From Spirochaetota bacterium (GTDB lineage Bacteria > Spirochaetota > UBA4802 > UB4802): a stretch of DNA of 42,779 bases. Numbering within the stretch: the first letter of the stretch is position 1; each line of letters opens with the position of its first letter. Position numbers and translations under genes: made by a program. Of the stretch, positions 6,980 through 42,779 are shown one piece after another. Where the stretch lies: the NCBI GenBank assembly GCA_040756435.1, contig JBFLZD010000033.1, positions 1 through 42,779 of the forward strand, in the 5' to 3' direction. The notes under the pieces were generated by a model, which searched no databases, was not told the origin of the DNA, and was given only the letters and a program-made list of their open reading frames with translations.

Positions 6980-7391
6980 TCCATCTCTGCGGTCTCTGTG
7001 TGAGACAATCTGATGCATCACGCAGAGTACGCAGAGTGCGCTGAGTTATTGGAGAGATAGCTGGATTTTGGGGCAGATACTTAATGGATAGGATGACTTG
7101 TTGCATATACGTCATTCCGGTCATCTCTTTTTGTCATTTCGAGCGTAGCGAGAAATCTTTGCTTCACTCTTTAAGATTTCTCAGTCACTTCGTTCCTTCG
7201 AAATGACAGAGTAATACCGTCATTCCGGGCTTGACCCAGAATCTTTATCCTCACCATTGTGGATCCTGAATCGAGTTCAGGATGACTGCACTGAATCAAT
7301 CCTGAAATAAATTCAGGACATGGTTCAGGATGACACACTGTTATTCATTACAAAACCCCGAAGGGGTGATATTATTGTAAGATGTCAGAGC
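6980..7391. repeat. composite intergenic repeat, copy 1
   Basis: First of two direct copies (the other is 7401-7835). In order it holds: an imperfect palindromic block rich in CGCAGAG (6985-7055); a long inverted repeat that starts GTCATTTCGAGCGTAGCG and ends CTTCGAAATGAC (7133-7207); a second palindromic block built on GTCATTCCGGGCTTGACC and TCAGGATGAC (about 7220-7286); and a CCCC-GAA-GGGG hairpin with the tail TGATATTATTGTAA (about 7355-7382). It ends with GTCAGAGC. No protein is encoded. It looks like several small non-autonomous elements nested or stacked together. Confidence 0.85.
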
Positions 7392-7400
7392 TTCACCCTC

Positions 7401-7835
7401 TCCATCTCTGCGGTCTCTGTGTGAGACAAACTGATGCATCACGCAGAGTACGCAGAGTACGCTGAGTTATTGGAGAGATAGTAGGATTTTGAGGCAGATA
7501 CTTAATGGATAGGATGACTTGTTGCCTATACGTCATTCCGGTCATCTCTTTTTGTCATTTCGAGCAATCCTTTATGTCATTTCGAGCGTAGCGAGAAATC
7601 TTTGCTTCCCCCTTTAAGATTTCTTAGTCACTTCGTTCCTTCGAAATGACAGAGTAATACCGTCATTCAGGGCTTGACCCGGAATCTTTATCCTCACCAT
7701 TGTGGATCCTGAATCGAGTTCAGGATGACTGCACTGAATCAATCCTGAAATAAATTCAGGACATGGTTCAGGATAACATGCTGCTATTCACTAAAAACCC
7801 CTGGAGGGGGTGATATTATTGTAAGGGGTCAGAGC
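7401..7835. repeat. composite intergenic repeat, copy 2
   Basis: This copy parallels copy 1 over its full length with scattered substitutions. One clear difference is a ~23-bp partial duplication of the GTCATTTCGAGC segment just before its inverted repeat at 7576-7650. Its hairpin is CCCCTGGAGGGG with the tail TGATATTATTGTAA, and it ends GGGGTCAGAGC. The order of sub-elements is the same, so the whole block was duplicated after assembly. Confidence 0.85.
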
Positions 7836-8129: not shown

Positions 8130-8343
8130 GTGTACACGGGGCGGTGTCCCAAAACAATCCGTGGAGTTCTCAATGACGCGGGTGCAAAGTCATTGCGAGC
8201 GCAGCGCTTGTACTGAGCTTGTCGAAGTGAAGCAATCTAAATAGCACAGAAGACAAGATTGCTTCGTCACTTCGTTCCTCGCAATGACAGTATGGCAAAA
8301 GTCATTGCAGAAGATGTCTTTTGAGACAACCCCGGGTGTACAC
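8130..8343. mobile_element. MITE-like element with GTGTACAC inverted ends
   Basis: A 214-bp non-coding element. The left end (GTGTACACGGGGCGGTGTCC) and the right end (GGACAACC-like, closing with CCCGGGTGTACAC) are imperfect inverted repeats of about 27 bp. Inside lies a second long inverted repeat, 8189-8288, starting GTCATTGCGAGCGCAGCG and ending GTTCCTCGCAATGAC. Its loop carries a small palindromic insert with GAGCTTGTCGAAGTG. No clear target-site duplication was found, so insertion is inferred from the ends only. Confidence 0.65.
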
Positions 8344-31981: not shown

Positions 31982-33067
31982 TTAATTTTGTATTTTCAAA
32001 CCACACCACCCAGCAGGTATTTCTCCACGAATCAACGAACGTGAAACACCACCATATAGGTTAACCTCTGGAGGGATGGCTTTTTTTTGTTTAATTTTAA
32101 ATGTTTTTGATTCAATCTGTGTAAAACGGCCTAACCGCAAAGGTATTAATTCATTTGAATTACATACAGTAGTTATATTTTCTTTTACTTTTGGATCTAT
32201 TGGATGTTTTTTATTATTTAATATTTCCAGGTTAAAATCCATCAAACTCTTCATTATGAATTCAATATTAAGAAAATCCCCTAATTTATAATTATTAACA
32301 AACTTTTTTAATCCATCTTCATCAATGGTAATTTCTCCTTCAGCAATGCATTCATCTTTATTTATATAGTGGCTAGCTGACATCTCAGTATAGATGGGTA
32401 TTCCTTTTTGCTGCTTACCTTTTCCAATTATCCTCACGGTATCTAAAAGAACCGTTTGGTTTTTAAACATTAAATCTGATACTTTCATAAACCTGAAAGG
32501 ATCAAGTCCTATATCAAATATTGCATTAGTATCTTTTTTCATTATTTGCATTTCGAAATCAGTTGATTGAAAATTTTTTGGTTTATTATTTTTAAATAAT
32601 TTAACATTGGGATACATATTATTTTTTTTTCTTAATGATTCCAGCAATGCTGTCCTTAATGCTCCTTTCAATGTTGAACCTGGAATATAAGGTTTCATGC
32701 TGAGTTCATCTTTAAAAATCTTATAAATTATTGCGTATGGATTGCTATCGACCCCTTGAATAAATTGGGGATGTGCCTGAACTCTTTGTATAATAACATC
32801 TAAATTTTGCAGTGCAACATTTTGCAGGATAGACCGTGCCCTCAAAAGCTTTTCTTTATCTTTTTTTATATCAGCAACAAGGGTATCCATAATGCTGAAA
32901 AATTGTTCTCTTTCTTTCTGGCTCATGAAATTAAAAGCTTTATTAAAATCAATAAGCATTATGGACTTTCCATCTTTAGTTGGCAATAATTCAAATATAC
33001 TATAAAATTCGCCGCTATGTATGATAAGTGGTGTAATGATATGTATTTTAACGGTATATGATTTCAT
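31982..33067 (-). CDS. csm5: type III-A CRISPR RAMP protein Csm5
   Basis: A 361-residue Cas7-like subunit that caps the crRNA 3' side of the Csm complex. The RAMP motif YIPGSTLKGALRTAL (about residues 135-150) and a C-terminal GGVSRSLIRGEI.AGW region fit Csm5. It is the last gene of the cas6-cas10-csm2-csm3-csm4-csm5 operon. AGGGGT lies upstream of the ATG. No csm6 or other CARF effector follows: the next 500 bp hold only a gene relic. Confidence 0.88.
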   Translation of the reverse strand: MKSYTVKIHIITPLIIHSGEFYSIFELLPTKDGKSIMLIDFNKAFNFMSQKEREQFFSIMDTLVADIKKDKEKLLRARSILQNVALQNLDVIIQRVQAHPQFIQGVDSNPYAIIYKIFKDELSMKPYIPGSTLKGALRTALLESLRKKNNMYPNVKLFKNNKPKNFQSTDFEMQIMKKDTNAIFDIGLDPFRFMKVSDLMFKNQTVLLDTVRIIGKGKQQKGIPIYTEMSASHYINKDECIAEGEITIDEDGLKKFVNNYKLGDFLNIEFIMKSLMDFNLEILNNKKHPIDPKVKENITTVCNSNELIPLRLGRFTQIESKTFKIKQKKAIPPEVNLYGGVSRSLIRGEIPAGWCGLKIQN

Positions 33068-33117
33068 ATAATAATACCCCTACTACTACTCATTAATTCT
33101 ATAAATAGCAACATCAA

Positions 33118-34071
33118 TCATGTTGTTATACCAACATCATTAGAATAATCAAAATATACAGGATAGGCATAAGCATATTGCCGTATTCTATAATCTGTGT
33201 GGACATTGTTTAGTAATTTACCATTTTTACCATTAGTTGTAAAAAACGTTGACCCAGCTTTATACAATACTATGGGCTTTTTATTAAAAAGCAACTGCCC
33301 ATTTATACCTTTTTGACTAAATTCTCCACCTAATTTGCCATACTTTGTTATTGTAGTATAACATAACGGTTGAAGGTTTTGACCAGCACAATCACTTAAC
33401 GTAACAAAATACTTTCCCTGGTACCCAAAAATGTTTTTTTCAATTACATCTAATTCATCAATTTTGACATCAAATATCCCTTTACCAGTAGAAGCATCAC
33501 TACCAAATCCCATCTGACAAGCTGTAAAAAATGCATTTTTAAAAATATCAGAATAACTGTCATCAAATTCAGTTACGTATACATTGTAACACATGCCATC
33601 CACGTTATTATAATAATAACTATTAGTAAATAATACCCCTTTCCTTACCATACCCGTAATACGGCTTATTGAGTTTCTTGTGATATCTATCTGACCTGGT
33701 TCAATTTTTTCTATTTCTGGAAGGTTAAGCTCTTGTATCAATAAATCTTGATTATAATCTTTTTGATATTTTTCAAATAATTCTAGCGAGATACATTTCA
33801 AATTTTTTAGTTTTTTATCACTTTCTATTTCTGAAATTGAATCCTTTAATGTAAAGGTTAATTGTGGCTTGTACATATAACCTTGCGGTATAAGTGAAGA
33901 AATAATAATTGGAATTGAATTGTTATCATATTCTTTAAGAAAGGATATTAGTGTATTTTCGCCATATAGAAATCGAATATACCAACATACAGTCCCAAAA
34001 ATTGTATCAGCAGAAAATATATCAGAAAACAGTGAAAGTGGTTTTAAAATATATTTATATTGCCGTTTCAT
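33118..34071 (-). CDS. csm4: type III-A CRISPR RAMP protein Csm4
   Basis: A 317-residue Cas5-like subunit that binds the 8-nt 5' handle of the crRNA and joins Cas10. The early SDIFSADTIFGTVCWYIRFL stretch (about residues 15-34) is typical of Csm4. A Gly-rich segment, FGSDASTGKGIFDV, lies mid-protein. It sits 11 bp after csm3 and 50 bp before csm5. Confidence 0.88.
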   Translation of the reverse strand: MKRQYKYILKPLSLFSDIFSADTIFGTVCWYIRFLYGENTLISFLKEYDNNSIPIIISSLIPQGYMYKPQLTFTLKDSISEIESDKKLKNLKCISLELFEKYQKDYNQDLLIQELNLPEIEKIEPGQIDITRNSISRITGMVRKGVLFTNSYYYNNVDGMCYNVYVTEFDDSYSDIFKNAFFTACQMGFGSDASTGKGIFDVKIDELDVIEKNIFGYQGKYFVTLSDCAGQNLQPLCYTTITKYGKLGGEFSQKGINGQLLFNKKPIVLYKAGSTFFTTNGKNGKLLNNVHTDYRIRQYAYAYPVYFDYSNDVGITT

Positions 34072-34082
34072 CTTTGTATAAC

Positions 34083-34727
34083 CTATGATAATGGTTCATC
34101 GTCAAGATATAAATCTTTAAACTGAATCTTACCATAACCTCTGCTTCCACTCCCACCTAATGCATCCTTTTCAAGGAGTTTGAGCCCTTCTCGCAATAAA
34201 TCAGTTATTTCCTTCCCATCCCCATCTTCTTTGAATATTCGTAGAGAAATTTCAAAATTAAATGATAATCCTGCTATAACTCGTTCTGACTGACGAGGAT
34301 TTAAAGCTCTACCTTTTATTCTATCTATAGTATTTTCTGTTTTTGCTTCGGTGGCCAATATATTGCGTTGTTTGAGCAATTCAATTGATTCGTCATCTAG
34401 AAAAGCATCCCTGAAAATTGCTCGTGTAATACCAACTTCTGAATCTTTATTGGTATTACCAAATGTTTTACAAATATGACACTTCCCACAATTACATGGT
34501 CCCCCTTTTTCCTTATCAAACTTATCCATATGAAGTTCCAAGAGACTACGTATTTTACCTTTAAGTGAAGAACCAGGTATATAAGGATAACCAGTTTTAG
34601 GGTCCTTAATTACAGGGTTATCAATACCACCAATTTCAATACCTTCAGTACCTCCGCCAATATGAAGTCCTGTCTTTAAATATATCTTTCCTTTAATTTT
34701 TTTAATTGTTAAATTTGCTATTTCCAT
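34083..34727 (-). CDS. csm3: type III-A CRISPR backbone protein Csm3
   Basis: A 214-residue Cas7-like subunit that forms the filament backbone and cuts target RNA at 6-nt steps. The probable catalytic Asp is Asp36 in GGIDNPVIKDP. YIPGSSLKGKIRSLLE and the C-terminal GSGSRGYGKIQF are the RAMP landmarks, and CNCGKCHIC is a probable zinc site. AAGGAGG precedes the ATG. With the Asp intact, target-RNA cleavage should be active. Confidence 0.93.
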   Translation of the reverse strand: MEIANLTIKKIKGKIYLKTGLHIGGGTEGIEIGGIDNPVIKDPKTGYPYIPGSSLKGKIRSLLELHMDKFDKEKGGPCNCGKCHICKTFGNTNKDSEVGITRAIFRDAFLDDESIELLKQRNILATEAKTENTIDRIKGRALNPRQSERVIAGLSFNFEISLRIFKEDGDGKEITDLLREGLKLLEKDALGGSGSRGYGKIQFKDLYLDDEPLS

Positions 34728-34748
34728 ATATTTTCCTCCTTATCTGAT

Positions 34749-35153
34749 TCATTTCTGGAATTTTTGAGTTTTTGTTTTACCTTCAACTTCTGAAATATAT
34801 GTATAATACGCTATTATTGCCTGGTAATGCATCAAAAATATTTTAAAATCAGAAATTGTTTTTATCTTATCTATTTCTTCATCCATATATTCTTTATAAT
34901 CATTTGATACCAAAAACTTATTATTTGATTTTCTACCTGCACTGTAGGCAATCTTTGATTTTATAAATTTAATATGGGGTAAAATTTCTTTTTCAAACCA
35001 CGCATCATTTGCATCTTGATTTTCATCTATTTTCCGCTCAATAATCTTAAAATCATCATAGAACTTCCGTATCTGGTTTTTATCAATATTGATAAAATCC
35101 GCTGCTTTTTTCTCAGCATCTTTTGTTACATATGATTCGGTTAATTCTATCAT
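34749..35153 (-). CDS. csm2: type III-A CRISPR small subunit Csm2
   Basis: A 134-residue, Lys/Glu-rich, all-helical small subunit. KNQIRKFYDDFKIIERKI near residue 30 is the family's most recognisable stretch. The ATG lies 2 bp beyond the cas10 stop codon, so the two are coupled. Position and size support the call more than sequence does. Confidence 0.85.
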   Translation of the reverse strand: MIELTESYVTKDAEKKAADFINIDKNQIRKFYDDFKIIERKIDENQDANDAWFEKEILPHIKFIKSKIAYSAGRKSNNKFLVSNDYKEYMDEEIDKIKTISDFKIFLMHYQAIIAYYTYISEVEGKTKTQKFQK

Positions 35154-35155
35154 TG

Positions 35156-37540
35156 TTATGCCTCCTTATGATTTATTTCTTTTTCTCGTGTTTCATATAA
35201 TGCTAATGAAATAATTGTTTCCAGAATATATGGCTTTAAACGTGAATAATCTTCAAAACACTGCTCAAGATATTGCAACTCTTCTTTATTTACCAATTGG
35301 CCATCTTTTTTAATTATTATATTCCTGCTAACGTCATATTTAAAATATGGAATATATATTAAATCCTCTGATGGTTTAAACTTATTTCTATATACCTTTT
35401 TTGCCATACGTGAATACTTCAGCAATCTGTATAAAAAAGAATGGTTAATTTTTGATTCAACACTATTATTTTGCTCAATAAACCATTGGGCTTTTTGATG
35501 TATATCACGTAATTGATCATATGAAATTACATTAAAATAATGTATTCTATTCCTACCACCATCTTTCGCTTCTTTTAATTTTTCTTCTGCCATGAGTGCA
35601 CTTTTGCTCATAGGATAATCAGGTTTTTGAATATATGTTCCGGTTGAGAAATGCAAATCCGGATGGTTACATACAAATTCTTTAAATTTTCTTTCAACAG
35701 TATCCATGAAATCTATTACTTGATTCCATGGAGCTATAACAAATAAATCATCTCCACCAGAAAATACTGTATAGATATTGGAAAATTCTTTTTGTAAAAC
35801 ATCTTTTATTACAAGATTAAAAAAAACATTGAACATCCGTGATAGTGTAACATACCGTGATACCGAAAGATCCTGTATGCCCTGGCTAAATATACTACCC
35901 ATGTTATCTACATCAAGTTTGATGTATGCTAAAAAAGCAGAGCCTACACCTCTTTTTTTATTATTATCTTTATCATTATAATATATTATAGCTGATTCTG
36001 CTATTTCTTTAAATTCTAATGTTTTATTATCCTTTTGAGGAACATAATTATTATACATTAGAAATGGTAGGTTTGAATCATTATCAAAACTAAAAGCACT
36101 AATAATGTTTTCATTAGAATTTAATGTATCTACAATGCTCATTGATATTTTTTCATTAAAATAGTTTACATCTCCACGCCTTTTACTAAAAAGAACAATA
36201 CTATTTTTAGTAATTTTAGAACCTATTTTAAACATTTCATCACATGAATTGCATCTTTCTTCTTCATGACCCGGCACAGGTGAATACCTACCACAAGATT
36301 TGCATAATTCACCTTCGTCATAATTTATATCAATAATACAATCTCCATTTTTTAATATATTATAAAATTTACGCGATTTAGCTATAGCCAATTTGTAATT
36401 TATTGTTTTGATAACATTACCAAATGATTTTAATTTCATCTCATCCTGAGAGGCTTCTAAACTATAATCATAAACTACGGTGAAATCGCCATGGAATGTA
36501 TTGAAAAACCATTTATCTGCCTCTTGAGTAAATTTCCTTATTGTATCTTTTATGTGTGGTAAATTTGGCAAAATAAGAGTAAATTTTCCACCTGCATTCA
36601 TCAATTGAACAAAGGGTGGTATTCCTAATGTATCACAAAGAGCATAGCAGTATGCCTGAGCTATCATAGCAACATATAATGATCGCCCTCTTATTATCTT
36701 TGATGAACCAGGAAATGCTTTTTGTTGATGCTGAAAAATAAATTGCTGGATACCTGATAGGTCACCTGCAAAAAATAGAAATGGTTTATCTGTAGTGCTC
36801 CCTTCATCGTGAAGTACTTTTAATACTAATGCTATTGCTGCTGTCGTTATAGCATGATCATATAAAGAAATGTCACAATATTTGTCATTTGTTGCTGATG
36901 GGATACACCAGCAATATTTTTGCAATAATGAAATAATATTATTAACAAAGTGATTTAAACCATATACTGGTTTATATTGTTGTATAGATTTTTCTAAATC
37001 TTTAACAAATGCACCCCATAATGTTTTATATTGATCCGCTAATATTGTAGTCTCTTCTTTTATTTCAAAAGGATATACGTTTTCAGGAGTTAAAGGTTTT
37101 AAATTATACCCATAAAGTGTATTAATACTTTTACTTAATGATATTCGGGTAAATACTGATCGCAAGTGACGTTTAAAATGACCACCCTTAACGTAATCTG
37201 TTTCATCACTGCGGTCACTTGCAGCAGATATGTTATCGGCTAAATCTATAATGCTTTCATCAGGAGTACTTGCATTATGATGTTTTGCAGCAAGATTCTT
37301 TACTTTTATCCAATCAAGTTCTCTTGGCAGATTTATTGTTTTACAGTCATTTTCAAAAAAGTCATATGTCCATAAAGCATGACGATGTGAATATCTACCG
37401 CTACTATGTGAAGGAAGTACAATAGCTTCAATTTCCCTTGGAAAAGCTGCATGTTCTTTGCCTTCATAAGCTCTTTCTTTAAATTTTCCTATGTCATGAA
37501 ATAATGAAGCAATTATAATTTCATAATACTCTTTTTTCAT
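35156..37540 (-). CDS. cas10: type III-A CRISPR large subunit Cas10/Csm1 with HD and GGDD
   Basis: A 794-residue multidomain effector. The N-terminal HD nuclease is intact (His15-Asp16 in LFHDIGKF), so target-dependent ssDNA cleavage is likely. The first palm domain shows AGDLSGIQQFIF (about 260-271). A zinc finger has CKSC and CNSC. The second palm carries GGDD at 595-598, the site that makes cyclic oligoadenylates. A helical C-terminal domain ends the protein. AGGTGTG precedes the ATG. Both activities therefore look alive, although no cyclic-oligoadenylate-activated effector is encoded in the window. Confidence 0.95.
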   Translation of the reverse strand: MKKEYYEIIIASLFHDIGKFKERAYEGKEHAAFPREIEAIVLPSHSSGRYSHRHALWTYDFFENDCKTINLPRELDWIKVKNLAAKHHNASTPDESIIDLADNISAASDRSDETDYVKGGHFKRHLRSVFTRISLSKSINTLYGYNLKPLTPENVYPFEIKEETTILADQYKTLWGAFVKDLEKSIQQYKPVYGLNHFVNNIISLLQKYCWCIPSATNDKYCDISLYDHAITTAAIALVLKVLHDEGSTTDKPFLFFAGDLSGIQQFIFQHQQKAFPGSSKIIRGRSLYVAMIAQAYCYALCDTLGIPPFVQLMNAGGKFTLILPNLPHIKDTIRKFTQEADKWFFNTFHGDFTVVYDYSLEASQDEMKLKSFGNVIKTINYKLAIAKSRKFYNILKNGDCIIDINYDEGELCKSCGRYSPVPGHEEERCNSCDEMFKIGSKITKNSIVLFSKRRGDVNYFNEKISMSIVDTLNSNENIISAFSFDNDSNLPFLMYNNYVPQKDNKTLEFKEIAESAIIYYNDKDNNKKRGVGSAFLAYIKLDVDNMGSIFSQGIQDLSVSRYVTLSRMFNVFFNLVIKDVLQKEFSNIYTVFSGGDDLFVIAPWNQVIDFMDTVERKFKEFVCNHPDLHFSTGTYIQKPDYPMSKSALMAEEKLKEAKDGGRNRIHYFNVISYDQLRDIHQKAQWFIEQNNSVESKINHSFLYRLLKYSRMAKKVYRNKFKPSEDLIYIPYFKYDVSRNIIIKKDGQLVNKEELQYLEQCFEDYSRLKPYILETIISLALYETREKEINHKEA

Positions 37541-37568
37541 ATATCACACCTAATAAAACGATAATAGG

Positions 37569-38495
37569 TCATACAACCTGTATAGCTCCAAATCCAAATG
37601 ATGTGTTATTCCCAATATTAATAATTTCTCCAATCTTTAATAATGGATATATTGATTCAACATTCCCAGAAAAGATTGCTTTACCTTTATACCCACTTAA
37701 TGGCATTTTTTGATTCCTTCTTTTAGAATATCTTTCAATAAATTCTAATCTAATATCCTGTGATACACAATGTATTGAATTAAAATCAATGTTGCTTATA
37801 TCTACTATGACGGGATTGTTCTCAAAAAAATAGGAAATAATTTCAATTTTTCTTCTAATATTTTTTATAATAGTTTCAATATCAACGTATTTCTGATATT
37901 TACCATTTGATTTGATTTTACATGGCGTTAAAAATGAAATTTCTAATGTATCAGAAATGTAATCATTATTGCAACATGAAAATGCTTTAAGATCACTTAA
38001 TTGGATGGTTTCTCCATTATATATTATGGAATTGCTTGCATAATCATGTATGCTTTTTATTGTAAATCTTCCTCTTTTAATGCCTATGCCTTTTTCACCC
38101 AATTCCATGAACGCATGGAGAATATTTGGAAAATATTTAAATGCATCACCAAAAAGTGAAAACTTAAAGGTAAAAGTATCACCCTTTTCAAATTGAACAG
38201 GGTAATCAAATAAAGGAGTCAATGCAAAAGGATGGGGTATATATTCAGATTGGCTCATCTTTTCAGAAGGTTTTATATTGGGAGTTTCAAAAATTATGGC
38301 ATAAACACACATAGTTACCAGGGGGCATTCTATACAATACTTATGTTGTTTCATAATACATACAGAATTCTTCAATGCAACACCAAAACCACCTCTTAGC
38401 GCAATTCCTGGGAAATTTGGGAATGTTATTTGTGTAACAACTTCACAGTTAACTTTTAAAGCATATATATGTAAATTACGTAAAATATCCCACAT
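37569..38495 (-). CDS. cas6: CRISPR precursor-crRNA endoribonuclease Cas6
   Basis: A 308-residue RAMP-fold nuclease that cuts the precursor CRISPR RNA in each repeat. It carries the ALRGGFGVALKNSVC and C.EC...C.YAIIFETP region of the Cas6 group with a Cys cluster, and a Gly-rich C-terminus (GNNTSFGFGAIQV). An in-frame TTG at 38,588 would give 339 residues, but homologous Cas6 proteins start close to the LRNLHIYALKV strand, so the ATG at 38,495 is preferred even though it lacks a clear Shine-Dalgarno. It is the first gene of the cas operon. Confidence 0.86.
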   Translation of the reverse strand: MWDILRNLHIYALKVNCEVVTQITFPNFPGIALRGGFGVALKNSVCIMKQHKYCIECPLVTMCVYAIIFETPNIKPSEKMSQSEYIPHPFALTPLFDYPVQFEKGDTFTFKFSLFGDAFKYFPNILHAFMELGEKGIGIKRGRFTIKSIHDYASNSIIYNGETIQLSDLKAFSCCNNDYISDTLEISFLTPCKIKSNGKYQKYVDIETIIKNIRRKIEIISYFFENNPVIVDISNIDFNSIHCVSQDIRLEFIERYSKRRNQKMPLSGYKGKAIFSGNVESIYPLLKIGEIINIGNNTSFGFGAIQVV

Positions 38496-38560
38496 GATTG
38501 GTATTTTATATATTATATTTTTTATAACTTGTAAAAAAATTAAACTATACTTTTTATCTA

Positions 38561-38588
38561 ATATTATAATATGACATTTTTTTGTCAA
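38561..38588 (-). promoter_or_regulatory. candidate promoter/operator of the cas operon
   Basis: On the minus strand TTGACA (38583-38588), a 16-bp spacer, then TAATAT (38561-38566). The -35 overlaps a perfect inverted pair TGACA...TGTCA (38572-38587) that a repressor could bind. The predicted leader is ~60 nt. Confidence 0.5.
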
Positions 38589-38631: not shown

Positions 38632-39324
38632 TTATATAATAACACATAAACCTATATTAAACAACAACGCTCTAGTTTTAACATCAGTGATAATTGCGTC
38701 TTCATCTTTATATACTGTTGACAACCCACATTCATACCGCATTCCTAATTCCAAACTAAATTGATCACTTAATGGTATATCCAGTCCCAGGTCAATATAT
38801 AATCCAAAATCATCATCAAAATCAATTGTTTCTTTTTCAGTTGCTGTCCCATATATTGTTGTATAAGTTATTTCTACTTCTGTATCACCCACCATACCGT
38901 AATATGCTCCAGCACCTAAAAAAAAGTATTCAAAATATAATCTTATACCAACTGGTATGATTAAATATGTTGTACCAAAATCAAATGTTATATCATCAAT
39001 TGCAGTATATGCAGGATAATTAATGCTAAAACTTTTGTATATAGCAGCAAGGCCGGTATTTAACGCAACATTATCATTAACAAAATAACGATAGACAACA
39101 CCAATACCACCTGCACCACCTGGATCACTAGAAGGATCCCGCCATAATGTTGGATCACCATCAAGAACTATACCAAGAGTACTTCCGCTCCACGATGTAA
39201 AATCTGCACCAGAAGCACCCAGATAAAGATTTCCATTTAATTGAGAGTTCCCCTCCCGTGCTATTAATGGCATAGAAATAAAAGAAAATAGTACTACTAA
39301 TAAAAATAATTTATTGTTTAGCAT
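38632..39324 (-). CDS. outer-membrane beta-barrel protein
   Basis: A 230-residue protein with a signal peptide (FLLVVLFSFISMPLIAREG, cut near residue 23) and alternating hydrophobic/polar strands typical of a small barrel. There are several Gly/aromatic-rich turns, and the protein ends in a hydrophobic strand (ALLFNIGLCVII) although without a terminal aromatic. AAGGAAGG lies upstream of the ATG. It is codirectional with cas6, but a promoter sits between them, so it is probably a neighbour and not part of the CRISPR system. The ligand is unknown. Confidence 0.8.
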   Translation of the reverse strand: MLNNKLFLLVVLFSFISMPLIAREGNSQLNGNLYLGASGADFTSWSGSTLGIVLDGDPTLWRDPSSDPGGAGGIGVVYRYFVNDNVALNTGLAAIYKSFSINYPAYTAIDDITFDFGTTYLIIPVGIRLYFEYFFLGAGAYYGMVGDTEVEITYTTIYGTATEKETIDFDDDFGLYIDLGLDIPLSDQFSLELGMRYECGLSTVYKDEDAIITDVKTRALLFNIGLCVII

Positions 39325-39445
39325 GGTTTTTATACCTTCCTTTTTTAATAAATAAATGTCGTTGTATTTTTAGACTCAGAAAGGCATAAAAATATAGGTA
39401 TACTCTACATTCTTTTTTCTTAATTAAATTAACACCAGTCCATCA

Positions 39446-39903
39446 ATCCCCGGATAAAATGACATAAATAAACCGCAAGCACTATATAGCAAACTCCTAT
39501 CTATCCCACTGATGGGAAGGCATTATTGCACCGTAATCAATATAACCACCATATCTAAATCCACATAGTGGTGTCATTATTGTCCACAAGCTACATATCT
39601 CCACACCACCCAACCCACGGAGTGGGTGACACTATTGTAACAGCTCAATATAATCACCTATACAACCCCCAGCGGGATGACATTACTGTAACAGCTATAT
39701 ACAACCATCTAATCAATCCCTTGGAGGATGACATTATTATAACCACAAGCTGAGTAACACACCACCCAATCCACGGAGTGGGTGACACTATTGTAACAGC
39801 ACTAAACAACCATCTCATCCATCCTCAGCGGGGATGATATTATTGTAACCACCTAACTGAGTAACACATCATCAAACCCACGGAGTGGGTGACATTATTG
39901 TCT
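39446..39903. repeat. hairpin-repeat array 1 (nine units, ~54-bp period)
   Basis: Nine units start at about 39446, 39504, 39559, 39613, 39665, 39716, 39769, 39821 and 39876, so the spacing is 51-58 bp. Each is a short stem-loop (for example ACCCAC-GGA-GTGGGT) followed by a conserved tail close to TGACATTATTGTAA. Stem sequences differ between units but stay paired, including some T-G pairs. The sequences between hairpins are themselves related (CTGAGTAACACA twice, ACAACCATCT twice), so this is a degenerate tandem array and not a CRISPR with unique spacers. A 62-codon frame through it (39568-39753) is an accident of the near-multiple-of-three period. Confidence 0.85.
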
Positions 39904-40140
39904 TAAGGCTAACTTGAGTGTTTCGTAAAATAATATACAGTAACAAGTAATGTTTTATTATTGTTACCCTCACATTAATGGTTTTATTATAAAATTTTTT
40001 CAAAAATTTTAAAAATTTTTTAATTTTTTTATTCCAAAAGCGTTGTATAGATATAAAACACTGTGATGAAATGCAAGATGTATGTATGTGTACTACAATA
40101 GCATTTTTATTTTATGCTACACGGTATGGCAAATATCATC
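39904..40140. other. AT-rich spacer, no gene seen
   Basis: A very AT-rich stretch (with an A/T-only run near 39,990-40,030) between hairpin array 1 and the promoter of the coiled-coil gene. No frame, RNA gene or repeat was recognised. Confidence 0.4.
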
Positions 40141-40169: not shown

Positions 40170-40193
40170 TAATATATGGAAGGAGATAAAAAA

Positions 40194-40736
40194 ATGGGCC
40201 AACATTTCTCAGCCGATGTATATGACATCTTTGAAAAGGCGTTTCATGGTAAAGAATATGCCAAAAAGGTATTATACGCACTGGAAGAGGTTATAGTGGA
40301 TACAGTACATGACACCTGGTATAAAACAAAAGAGGAACTAAAGGCAGAAGTTTTAAGTCATTATGCTACCAAGCAAGATTTGGAACAGGTACGTATTGAA
40401 CTTTTAGGAAAATTAGATGCATTATATCAAAAAACAGAAAGGGATAAAGCTGAACTACTTGGCATAATGAAGCAGGATAAGGCTGAGCTTGTAGGAGCAC
40501 TCCAACAAACCAGAGAAGAACTTTTAGGTATTATGAAGCAAGATAAAGCTGAATTGCTGGGAAAATTTGATGCATTGTATCACAAAACAGAAAAGGATAA
40601 AGCTGAAATTAATTTACGAATTGAGCATTTGGATAAAAAATTCAGTATTTATTTTGCAGCGTTATTTTTTATTGTCATTTTCTTAAATCAGAATGCTTTA
40701 GAATTTTTGGTAAAAGTGATAGGCTTGGTTAAATAG
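40194..40736 (+). CDS. coiled-coil protein with C-terminal membrane anchor (DUF1640-like)
   Basis: A 180-residue protein. After an N-terminal helix pair, residues ~55-150 form a long Glu/Lys/Leu coiled coil with YATKQDLEQVRIELLGKLDA and internal duplications (ELLGIMKQDKAEL twice, ALYQKTERDKAEL / ALYHKTEKDKAEI). A single membrane helix (IYFAALFFIVIFLN) ends it. It resembles the multi-copy DUF1640/CCDC90-like family. GGAAGGAG lies eight bases before the ATG at 40,194, which decides against the ATG at 40,176. It has its own promoter and terminator, lies between two hairpin-repeat arrays, and has a broken relative at 31,710 on the other side of the cas operon. The function is unknown. Confidence 0.8.
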   Translation: MGQHFSADVYDIFEKAFHGKEYAKKVLYALEEVIVDTVHDTWYKTKEELKAEVLSHYATKQDLEQVRIELLGKLDALYQKTERDKAELLGIMKQDKAELVGALQQTREELLGIMKQDKAELLGKFDALYHKTEKDKAEINLRIEHLDKKFSIYFAALFFIVIFLNQNALEFLVKVIGLVK

Positions 40737-40920: not shown

Positions 40921-41508
40921 AACCCCAACGGTGTGACATTATTTTCAAGACATTCACCCGCCAAAATAAAAAACCCACAGAGTGGGTGACATTATTTTAA
41001 ACACCAGCAAAATATCACCACCCCACTGAACCCCGGAGGGGTGGCATTATTATAATCCCAGCAGTAGTGAAACATAACATAATCCCTGGAAGGGATGACA
41101 TTATTGTAACCACCTAGCGGAATATCACCACCCCACTGAACCCCGGAGGGGTGGCATTATTGTAAACCCCCTATCAGCGGGGTGCTTTGACTAGCGCTTA
41201 CTCCATCCCATCAACGTGCTCAGCAACCTCATCCATTGCTATTCATCACCGAACCCCCAAGTGATAGCATTATTTTCCATCCCCTTTGCGCCACCATCGA
41301 ACTCGATTGTTAAAAGCGTCACAACCCCAGAGGGGTGTAATTATTGTAACTACCTAGCGGAATGACACACCATCACAACTCCGGAGGGGTGGCATTATTG
41401 TAAATCCCCGTAGTAGTGAAATACAACAAAATCCCTGGAGGGGATGACATTATTGTAACCACCTAGCGGAAAATCACCACCCCACTGAACCCCAGCGGGG
41501 TGACATTA
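40921..41508. repeat. hairpin-repeat array 2, running into the CRISPR
   Basis: Units start at about 40921, 40972, 41029, 41081, 41139, 41252, 41323, 41377, 41430 and 41488, mostly 51-58 bp apart, with one decayed stretch (41,190-41,320). Stems include ACCCC-GGA-GGGGT, ATCCCT-GGA-AGGGAT, ACCCC-AGA-GGGGT and ACCCC-AGC-GGGGT, each followed by TG[AG]CATTATTGTAA. The words CACCTAGCGGAA and AGTAGTGAAA recur between units. At 41165-41190 a segment CCCCCTATCAGCGGGG closely resembles the core of the CRISPR repeat. The last unit continues without a break into the first, degenerate CRISPR repeat. Confidence 0.85.
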
Positions 41509-42779
41509 TTGTAAACCCCCTATTAGCGGGGAAGTTTTCCTACCAGAATTTTCAAAGTTTAAAAACTCTGTGAATATGCTATCAACGTCTCAATCCCCTA
41601 TTAGCGGGGAAGTTTTCCTACTTTTGTAATTTCTGAAAGTGAAAAAGGTAAAAAAAGATTTCGTCTCAATCCCCTATTAGCGGGGAAGTTTTCCTACACG
41701 ATAAAGATAATATGAAAAACTTCTTTATTAAAGTAAGAGGTCTCAATCCCCTATTAGCGGGGAAGTTTTCCTACTTTTGTAATTTCTGAAAGTGAAAAAG
41801 GTAAAAAAAGATTTCGTCTCAATCCCCTATTAGCGGGGAAGTTTTCCTACACGATAAAGATAATATGAAAAACTTCTTTATTAAAGTAAGAGGTCTCAAT
41901 CCCCTATTAGCGGGGAAGTTTTCCTACGAGTGAGTAAACCGTCCTCAACGTCCTCTTTCTTATCCCTGGTCTCAATCCCCTATTAGCGGGGAAGTTTTCC
42001 TACCATAAATGGTAGCAAAGACAAGATTAATAAGCTTGATAAAAAGTCTCAATCCCCTATTAGCGGGGAAGTTTTCCTACGGGGAGTCTGTAGTCGGTAC
42101 GATAGTGACCGACGTTAATACCAAGTCTCAATCCCCTATTAGCGGGGAAGTTTTCCTACATTTTTATGAGAGCAAACCATATGTGAGAATGACTGGACGC
42201 AGTCTCAATCCCCTATTAGCGGGGAAGTTTTCCTACTCAAAGGCAATGTAGCAAAGATAAATGGACTGGATAAATCTAAGTCTCAATCCCCTATTAGCGG
42301 GGAAGTTTTCCTACTAGTAATTTTGTTCCTGGAAAGGGTGGAGTAAGGGGTAAGGTGTCTCAATCCCCTATTAGCGGGGAAGTTTTCCTACGATTATGTT
42401 TATAAGTTGGAATTCACTAAAAAGGGTTTGTCTCAATCCCCTATTAGCGGGGAAGTTTTCCTACCAATTTTATTATATTTATATCATAAATTTAAACAAG
42501 AAAAGTCTCAATCCCCTATTAGCGGGGAAGTTTTCCTACCATACTAAACTAACGGAGGTTGTAAAATGAATTATCGGTCTCAATCCCCTATTAGCGGGGA
42601 AGTTTTCCTACGATAACGCAATATCCAGAAATATGTATGTTAGAAGCAGGGTTGGTCTCAATCCCCTATTAGCGGGGAAGTTTTCCTACCATAAATGGTA
42701 GCAAAGACAAGATTAATAAGCTTGATAAAAAGTCTCAATCCCCTATTAGCGGGGAAGTTTTCCTACGGGGAGTCTGTAG
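41509..42779 (-). CRISPR. CRISPR array, 16 full 35-nt repeats plus one degenerate, open at the window end
   Basis: The plus-strand repeat starts GTCTCAATCCCC, has TATTAGC in the middle and ends GGGGAAGTTTTCCTAC (35 nt). Full copies start at 41587, 41663, 41740, 41816, 41893, 41969, 42046, 42125, 42202, 42280, 42357, 42430, 42505, 42577, 42655 and 42732. The copy at 41509-41543 has a changed outer end. Spacers are 37-44 nt. Read on the minus strand the repeat ends ATTGAGAC, a good 8-nt type III crRNA handle, and the degenerate copy becomes the last repeat. So transcription is inferred to be leftward, with the leader beyond the window to the right. Two spacers are duplicated in tandem and another recurs at the end. 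Confidence 0.97.
41587..41927. repeat. tandem duplication of two spacer-repeat units in the CRISPR
   Basis: The 153-bp unit 41622-41774 (two spacers and two repeats) is identical to 41775-41927. Counting the shared repeat, the exact match is 188 bp. The two spacers begin TTTTGTAATTTC and ACGATAAAGATA. Confidence 0.95.

What the first reader, a model, noticed from the sequence alone, without database searches (positions are those of the whole stretch)
41139..41621. CRISPR repeat appears to share ancestry with the hairpin repeat
The CRISPR repeat core (AATCCCC-TATTAGC-GGGG) has the same stem as the hairpin units (AA[CT]CCCC ... GGGG). The last hairpin unit at 41488 runs straight into the degenerate CRISPR repeat at 41509-41543, and 26 bp after the hairpin at 41139 there is a second CRISPR-like core (CCCCCTATCAGCGGGG) with no array behind it. 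The same composite (hairpin, tail, CCCC..TAGTAG) is also visible in weaker form near 41051 and 41403. Either the CRISPR repeat grew out of this chromosomal repeat family, or old CRISPR repeats and hairpin units have been recombining. I know of no described case.
Basis: partly seen in the sequence, partly recalled or inferred. Interest (0 to 1): 0.72.

Follow-up and report, generated by a model that had tools for sequence, protein, structure and literature searches.

The report
Hairpin repeats beside a CRISPR tail
In this spirochaete genome the old, decayed end of a bacterial immune-memory (CRISPR) array lies next to a tandem array of small hairpin repeats, but the two repeat families are unrelated: relatives carry the same CRISPR repeat without the hairpins, and the likeness is only a generic CCCC/GGGG stem.

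Summary
A tandem hairpin array (C4–NNN–G4–TGACATTATTGTAA units) runs directly into the leader-distal, degenerate last repeat of a type III-A CRISPR array (41511–41543). A second CRISPR core, CCCCTATCAGCGGGG, lies at 41168–41182. That core is the end of a 129-bp duplication (41054–41182 = 41403–41531, 11 mismatches) that stops exactly at the CRISPR stem. Three more such cores, and further hairpin/last-repeat junctions, occur elsewhere in the genome. Common ancestry fails every test. With the stem fixed, the resemblance is chance (P 0.28–0.34). Covariance models of hairpin and CRISPR repeat do not recognise each other. The hairpin family (about 120 copies) is absent from four congeners, two of which have the same CRISPR core. 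In one, the syntenic locus has an intact repeat where this genome has 2 kb of hairpins. A third congener shows the same orphan-core layout with no hairpins, its core cut at the same place by another palindromic repeat. Best reading: the decaying trailer end of the array was fused to a hairpin array, then copied by local and segmental duplication. An ordinary REP-like island; modest interest.

The parts
39440..39905 (+). Hairpin array 1: about 8 C4-NNN-G4 units spaced 51-55 bp, between the outer-membrane-protein gene and the 186-aa ORF
40176..40736 (+). 186-aa coiled-coil ORF with a hydrophobic C-terminus (read by eye), flanked by the two hairpin arrays; same layout on contig C16
40917..41515 (+). 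Hairpin array 2: units at 40971, 41028, 41080, 41138, 41322, 41376, 41429, 41487 (R1 matches)
41054..41182 (+). Upstream copy of a 129-bp duplication that carries the orphan CRISPR core at its right end
41168..41182 (+). Orphan CRISPR core CCCCTATCAGCGGGG, truncated after the 3' stem arm
41183..41195 (+). TGCTTTGACTAGC: decayed copy of an interspersed palindromic repeat (TGCTTCGACAAGC) that replaces the rest of the CRISPR repeat
41403..41531 (+). Downstream copy of the 129-bp duplication, ending inside the last CRISPR repeat
41511..41543 (-). Last (leader-distal) degenerate CRISPR repeat; its eight-base handle ATTGAGAC has been replaced by hairpin-unit tail
41587..42779 (-). CRISPR array, repeat GTAGGAAAACTTCCCCGCTAATAGGGGATTGAGAC in the inferred reading direction, 16 intact repeats up to the contig end; leader not in the window
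31982..38588 (-). Type III-A genes csm5, csm4, csm3, csm2, cas10/csm1, cas6
38632..39324 (-). Outer-membrane beta-barrel gene that anchors the synteny with congener G004 (aligned) and G003 (read by eye)

Best explanation
Two unrelated repeat families have been fused at one place. The array belongs to a type III-A CRISPR locus read leftwards, so 41511-41543 is its oldest, leader-distal repeat, the part of an array that normally decays. In this species an amplified REP-like hairpin repeat formed tandem arrays; one of them became joined to the decaying last repeat, so that the repeat's final eight bases (the ATTGAGAC handle) were replaced by the hairpin unit's tail. The joined segment was then copied: as a 129-bp duplication in the window, about 190-220-bp tandem duplications on contig C16, and with larger segments to other loci (C16, C19, C83). 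In some copies the rest of the CRISPR repeat was overwritten by a second palindromic repeat (CTTCGACAAGC), leaving orphan cores. The hairpins need have no role in CRISPR function. Shown: the sequences, duplications, synteny, model tests and absence of hairpins in congeners. Inferred: array direction (from the conserved leader and the handle), the order of events, and a single original fusion.
For: The hairpin model finds 120 copies in this genome, none in congeners G001, G002 and G004, and two marginal hits in G003, one inside what reads as a coding gene. The CRISPR core CAATCCCCTATTAGCGGGG is exact in G001 and G004 and in MAG SKW14. G004 C112: membrane-protein gene, then about 130 bp, then an intact first repeat, where this genome has about 2.1 kb of hairpins plus ORF. 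G003: same kind of locus, tandem copy of trailer flank plus core, orphan core cut after the stem by CGCTTCGACAGGCTCAGC, no hairpins. The TATCAGC core variant of two orphans is also that of the single relic repeat at G003 C65, without hairpins. Stem-preserving shuffles: best score P 0.28, mean score P 0.34. Hairpin model matches no CRISPR repeat and CRISPR model matches no hairpin unit. Same junction in C33, C16 and C19, and a diverged one in C83. Duplication boundary exactly at GGGG. Conserved leader on the other side of the array.
Against: All four CRISPR loci of this genome whose trailer end is readable abut hairpin arrays (C33, C16, C19, C83), more than chance placement would give. This is attributed to copying of one fused segment, but C19 and C83 share only about 190 bp at 84% and independent fusions are not excluded. 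One hairpin subtype shares TCAATCCCC with the CRISPR repeat (9 bases; left-flank P about 0.07-0.08), so a small extra resemblance cannot be wholly dismissed. The order of events cannot be proved from one genome: loss of hairpins in the congeners is possible in principle.
Confidence: 0.86

Rival explanations
1. The CRISPR repeat evolved from the chromosomal hairpin family.
For: Both have a C4/G4 stem, and one hairpin subtype shares TCAATCCCC with the repeat.
Against: The repeat core is conserved across the genus and in SKW14 while the hairpin family was found only in this species. No similarity beyond the stem. Loop 3 versus 7 nt, and the hairpin's conserved TGACATTATTGTAA tail has no counterpart in the repeat.
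Confidence: 0.02
2. The hairpin arrays are degenerate former CRISPR arrays: the units are decayed repeats and the linkers decayed spacers.
For: Regular spacing of 51-56 bp; hairpin arrays end in CRISPR repeats at four loci.
Against: Linkers fall into a few repeated families rather than unique spacers. Hairpins also occur dispersed, far from any array, among other palindromic repeats. The stems co-vary and all 90 pair cells counted are paired, so the units are not decayed. The CRISPR model matches none of them.
Confidence: 0.04
3. Recurrent ectopic recombination or targeted insertion: hairpin units repeatedly join CRISPR last repeats through the shared stem, so the association arose independently several times.
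For: Four loci with a similar junction. In C19 the leader flank is collinear with G004 for 6.4 kb yet the array is down to one repeat followed by hairpins. The common linker GTAACCACCTA-GCGG offers short homology to CCTATTAGCGG.
Against: The junctions fall at nearly the same base with similar neighbouring units, and C16 and C33 share the ORF and both hairpin arrays (84% over 1,077 bp), as expected for copies of one event.
Confidence: 0.2
4. Assembly artefact joining unrelated repeats.
For: Genome in 126 contigs; several contigs end in these repeats, and C33 shares a spacer with C10.
Against: The junction recurs in four contigs with different flanks and with divergence; most are not at contig ends.
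Confidence: 0.03

Closest known systems
CGTC-tagged REP super-family (PMC3733652)
   Same: Short palindrome, high copy, mostly intergenic; a TGTC motif beside the stem in 42 of 90 units (the paper notes CGTC changed to TGTC in many repeats), stem starting A[TC]; the super-family is reported in Spirochaetes and has no dedicated transposase
   Different: Stem of 5-6 bp and 3-nt loop instead of 8-9 bp and 4-5 nt; forms head-to-tail arrays, whereas CGTC clusters are rare and dimers mostly head-to-head
Degenerate leader-distal CRISPR repeats (CRISPRDetect, PMC4869251)
   Same: Last repeat decayed at the leader-distal end; further decayed repeats lie beyond the array
   Different: Here the missing part of the repeat is replaced by hairpin-unit sequence and the decayed end has been duplicated with it
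Type III-A (Csm) CRISPR-Cas
   Same: csm1-5 and cas6 near the array
   Different: Nothing unusual seen in the cas genes; adaptation genes are not in the window

Membership tests
CGTC-tagged REP super-family | CGTC (or TGTC) motif at one end of the palindrome | tested here: inconclusive
   TGTC in 42 of 90 units, TATC in 25, others the rest
CGTC-tagged REP super-family | Stem of 8-9 bp and loop of 4-5 nt (PMC3733652) | tested here: not met
   Stem 5-6 bp, loop 3 nt
CGTC-tagged REP super-family | Clusters rare, head-to-head dimers predominant (PMC3733652) | tested here: not met
   Head-to-tail arrays spaced 51-56 bp
Type III-A CRISPR locus | csm1-csm5 genes with cas6 and a CRISPR array | tested here: met
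   NCBIfam cut-offs passed by csm1-csm5; Cas6 passes the Pfam cut-off but is below the NCBIfam one; array
CRISPR repeat (claim that hairpin units are a form of it) | Recognised by a profile of the CRISPR repeat | tested here: not met
   No hairpin unit matched at E<=5 in 123.5 kb
CRISPR repeat (41511-41543) | Recognised by a profile of the CRISPR repeat, in register with the array | tested here: met
   38.8 bits; 78 bp from the next repeat
CRISPR repeat (orphan core 41168-41182) | Recognised over the full repeat | tested here: not met
   Only model positions 9-29, 15.9 bits, E 0.19; its origin from a repeat is inferred from the duplication

The most novel reading that the evidence does not exclude
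Hairpin arrays and CRISPR trailer ends are recombination partners in this lineage: repeated exchange between them has redistributed leader-plus-repeat segments among at least four chromosomal loci and collapsed arrays to a single repeat.
Probability: 0.2. Interest if true: 0.5.

Novelty: new member of a known kind. Interest (0 to 1): 0.22.

Why it matters
It tests a tempting claim, that a CRISPR repeat was born from a chromosomal hairpin repeat, and finds against it using relatives. What remains of use is a clear picture of how the old end of a CRISPR array decays: palindromic repeats overwrite the last repeat and local duplications leave orphan cores that could be mistaken for CRISPR origins.

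Tried and rejected
The hairpin pattern had no exact match in viral contigs. The two marginal hairpin hits in G003 were read: one lies in what looks like a coding gene, the other is not a hairpin array. An origin of the orphan tail from a gene was considered, but it has no other copy in the genome; its first 13 bases are an interspersed palindromic motif. The first alignment of hairpin units was misaligned in the stem, so the model was built on units of equal length. CRISPR spacers were checked for 14-mers from the two window hairpin arrays: none. A search of papers for REP or MITE elements tied to CRISPR repeats listed no title that describes such a case; only the listed titles and abstracts, and three papers in part, were read.

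Full report
What is there. The window is contig C33 of a 3.6-Mb genome in 126 contigs; named relatives with the same CRISPR core are Spirochaetota MAGs. On the minus strand lie csm5, csm4, csm3, csm2, cas10/csm1 and cas6, then an outer-membrane-protein gene, hairpin array 1, a 186-aa coiled-coil ORF, hairpin array 2, and from 41511 a CRISPR array that runs off the contig. On C16, C10, C19 and in congeners G001 and G004 a conserved sequence (TCTTGGGGTTGTAACC... or close to it) follows the array on the side opposite the hairpins. I take it as the leader, so the hairpin side is the trailer and the repeat reads GTAGGAAAACTTCCCCGCTAATAGGGGATTGAGAC.

The observation. The hairpin unit at 41487–41515 runs into a degenerate last repeat at 41511–41543. 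The second core at 41168–41182 is real, but it is the right end of a 129-bp duplication, 41054–41182 against 41403–41531, with 11 mismatches; identity collapses immediately after GGGG. The weaker copies claimed at 41051 and 41403 are linkers and are not matched by the CRISPR model.

The rest of the genome. The core occurs in the arrays of C10, C16 and C33, as three orphan cores on C16 each following a hairpin unit, and once each on C19 and C83 between a hairpin array and a leader or leader-like sequence. Aligned, the last repeats, the single repeats and the orphans share one junction: hairpin tail, then the CRISPR repeat from about its ninth base. C83 is the most diverged.

Is the hairpin related to the repeat? 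Ninety hairpin units were collected. Nearly all have a 5–6 bp stem (ACCCC, ACCCCC, ATCCCC or ACCCAC with their complements) and a 3-nt loop. The stem co-varies: 15 distinct units, every pair kept, two pairs with changes on both sides. The CRISPR stem has a 7-nt loop. When the CRISPR flanks and loop are shuffled with the stem fixed, the best alignment score to any hairpin unit is reached in 27.5% of shuffles and the mean score in 34%. A covariance model of the hairpin finds no CRISPR repeat among its matches at E<=1 in 121.5 kb; one of the CRISPR repeat finds arrays, last repeats and orphan cores but no hairpin unit at E<=5 in 123.5 kb.

Relatives. The hairpin model has 120 matches here, none in congeners G001, G002 and G004, and two marginal ones in G003 that are not arrays. 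G001 and G004 have the same repeat core. In G004, contig C112 carries the membrane-protein gene and, about 130 bp on, an intact first repeat; here the same interval is about 2.1 kb of hairpins and ORF. Contig C8 of G004 is collinear over 6.4 kb with C19 here, up to the leader and first repeat; beyond it G004 has a further repeat before its contig ends, and C19 has a hairpin array. In G003, with a diverged repeat (GTCTCAATCCCCTATTCACGAGGAAGTTTTCGAAC), the trailer flank and the core of the last repeat are duplicated in tandem, and the upstream core is cut directly after its stem by CGCTTCGACAGGCTCAGC. No hairpin match reaches significance there. The orphan cores here are cut at the same base by TGCTTCGACAAGC or decayed forms of it, an interspersed motif with 19 exact copies in the genome against none for the reversed control. 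So orphan cores arise at this trailer without any hairpin.

Interpretation. The CRISPR repeat is very probably older than the hairpin family in this lineage, and the two share only a generic stem. The composites come from fusion of a hairpin array to a decaying last repeat, followed by copying. C16 and C33 share both hairpin arrays and the ORF (84% over 1,077 bp), and C19 and C83 share 84% over 190 bp at the junction, which suggests one fusion; recurrent recombination is not excluded. Decayed leader-distal repeats are a recognised feature of arrays (PMC4869251). The hairpins resemble the CGTC/TGTC-tagged REP super-family (PMC3733652) in layout but fail its stem and loop lengths, so I do not file them there.

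Noticed in passing
window 40176-40736: Coiled-coil ORF with a hydrophobic C-terminus and a variable number of internal repeats (KAELLGIMKQD type), flanked by hairpin arrays; relatives on C16, C9 and C24 and in G001 and G003; no confident Pfam or NCBIfam match.
   Followed up: partly
window 41622-42731: The CRISPR array holds repeated spacers (41622 = 41775, 41698 = 41851, 42004 = 42690) and shares one spacer (42612) with contig C10, so C33 and C10 may be parts of one array with internal duplication or an assembly break.
   Followed up: partly
L062 2131-2396: The four leader-proximal repeats of the C10 array carry TTTTAGC instead of TATTAGC in the loop, while the other five have the standard loop: a repeat variant apparently spreading from the leader end.
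   Followed up: no
window 6990-7830 and 8190-8330: Dense mosaic of several interspersed palindromic repeats (GTCATTGCGAGC, TTCAGGATGAC, GCAGAGTACGCAGAG types) with dispersed hairpin units at 7353 and 7795.
   Followed up: no
L136 2174-2285: Congener G003 has the CRISPR repeat with CCCC opposite GAGG, which breaks one pair of the stem that the other species keep.
   Followed up: no
L062 2783-2949: On C10 the array's far end meets sequence that looks like the end of an insertion element at the contig end.
   Followed up: no
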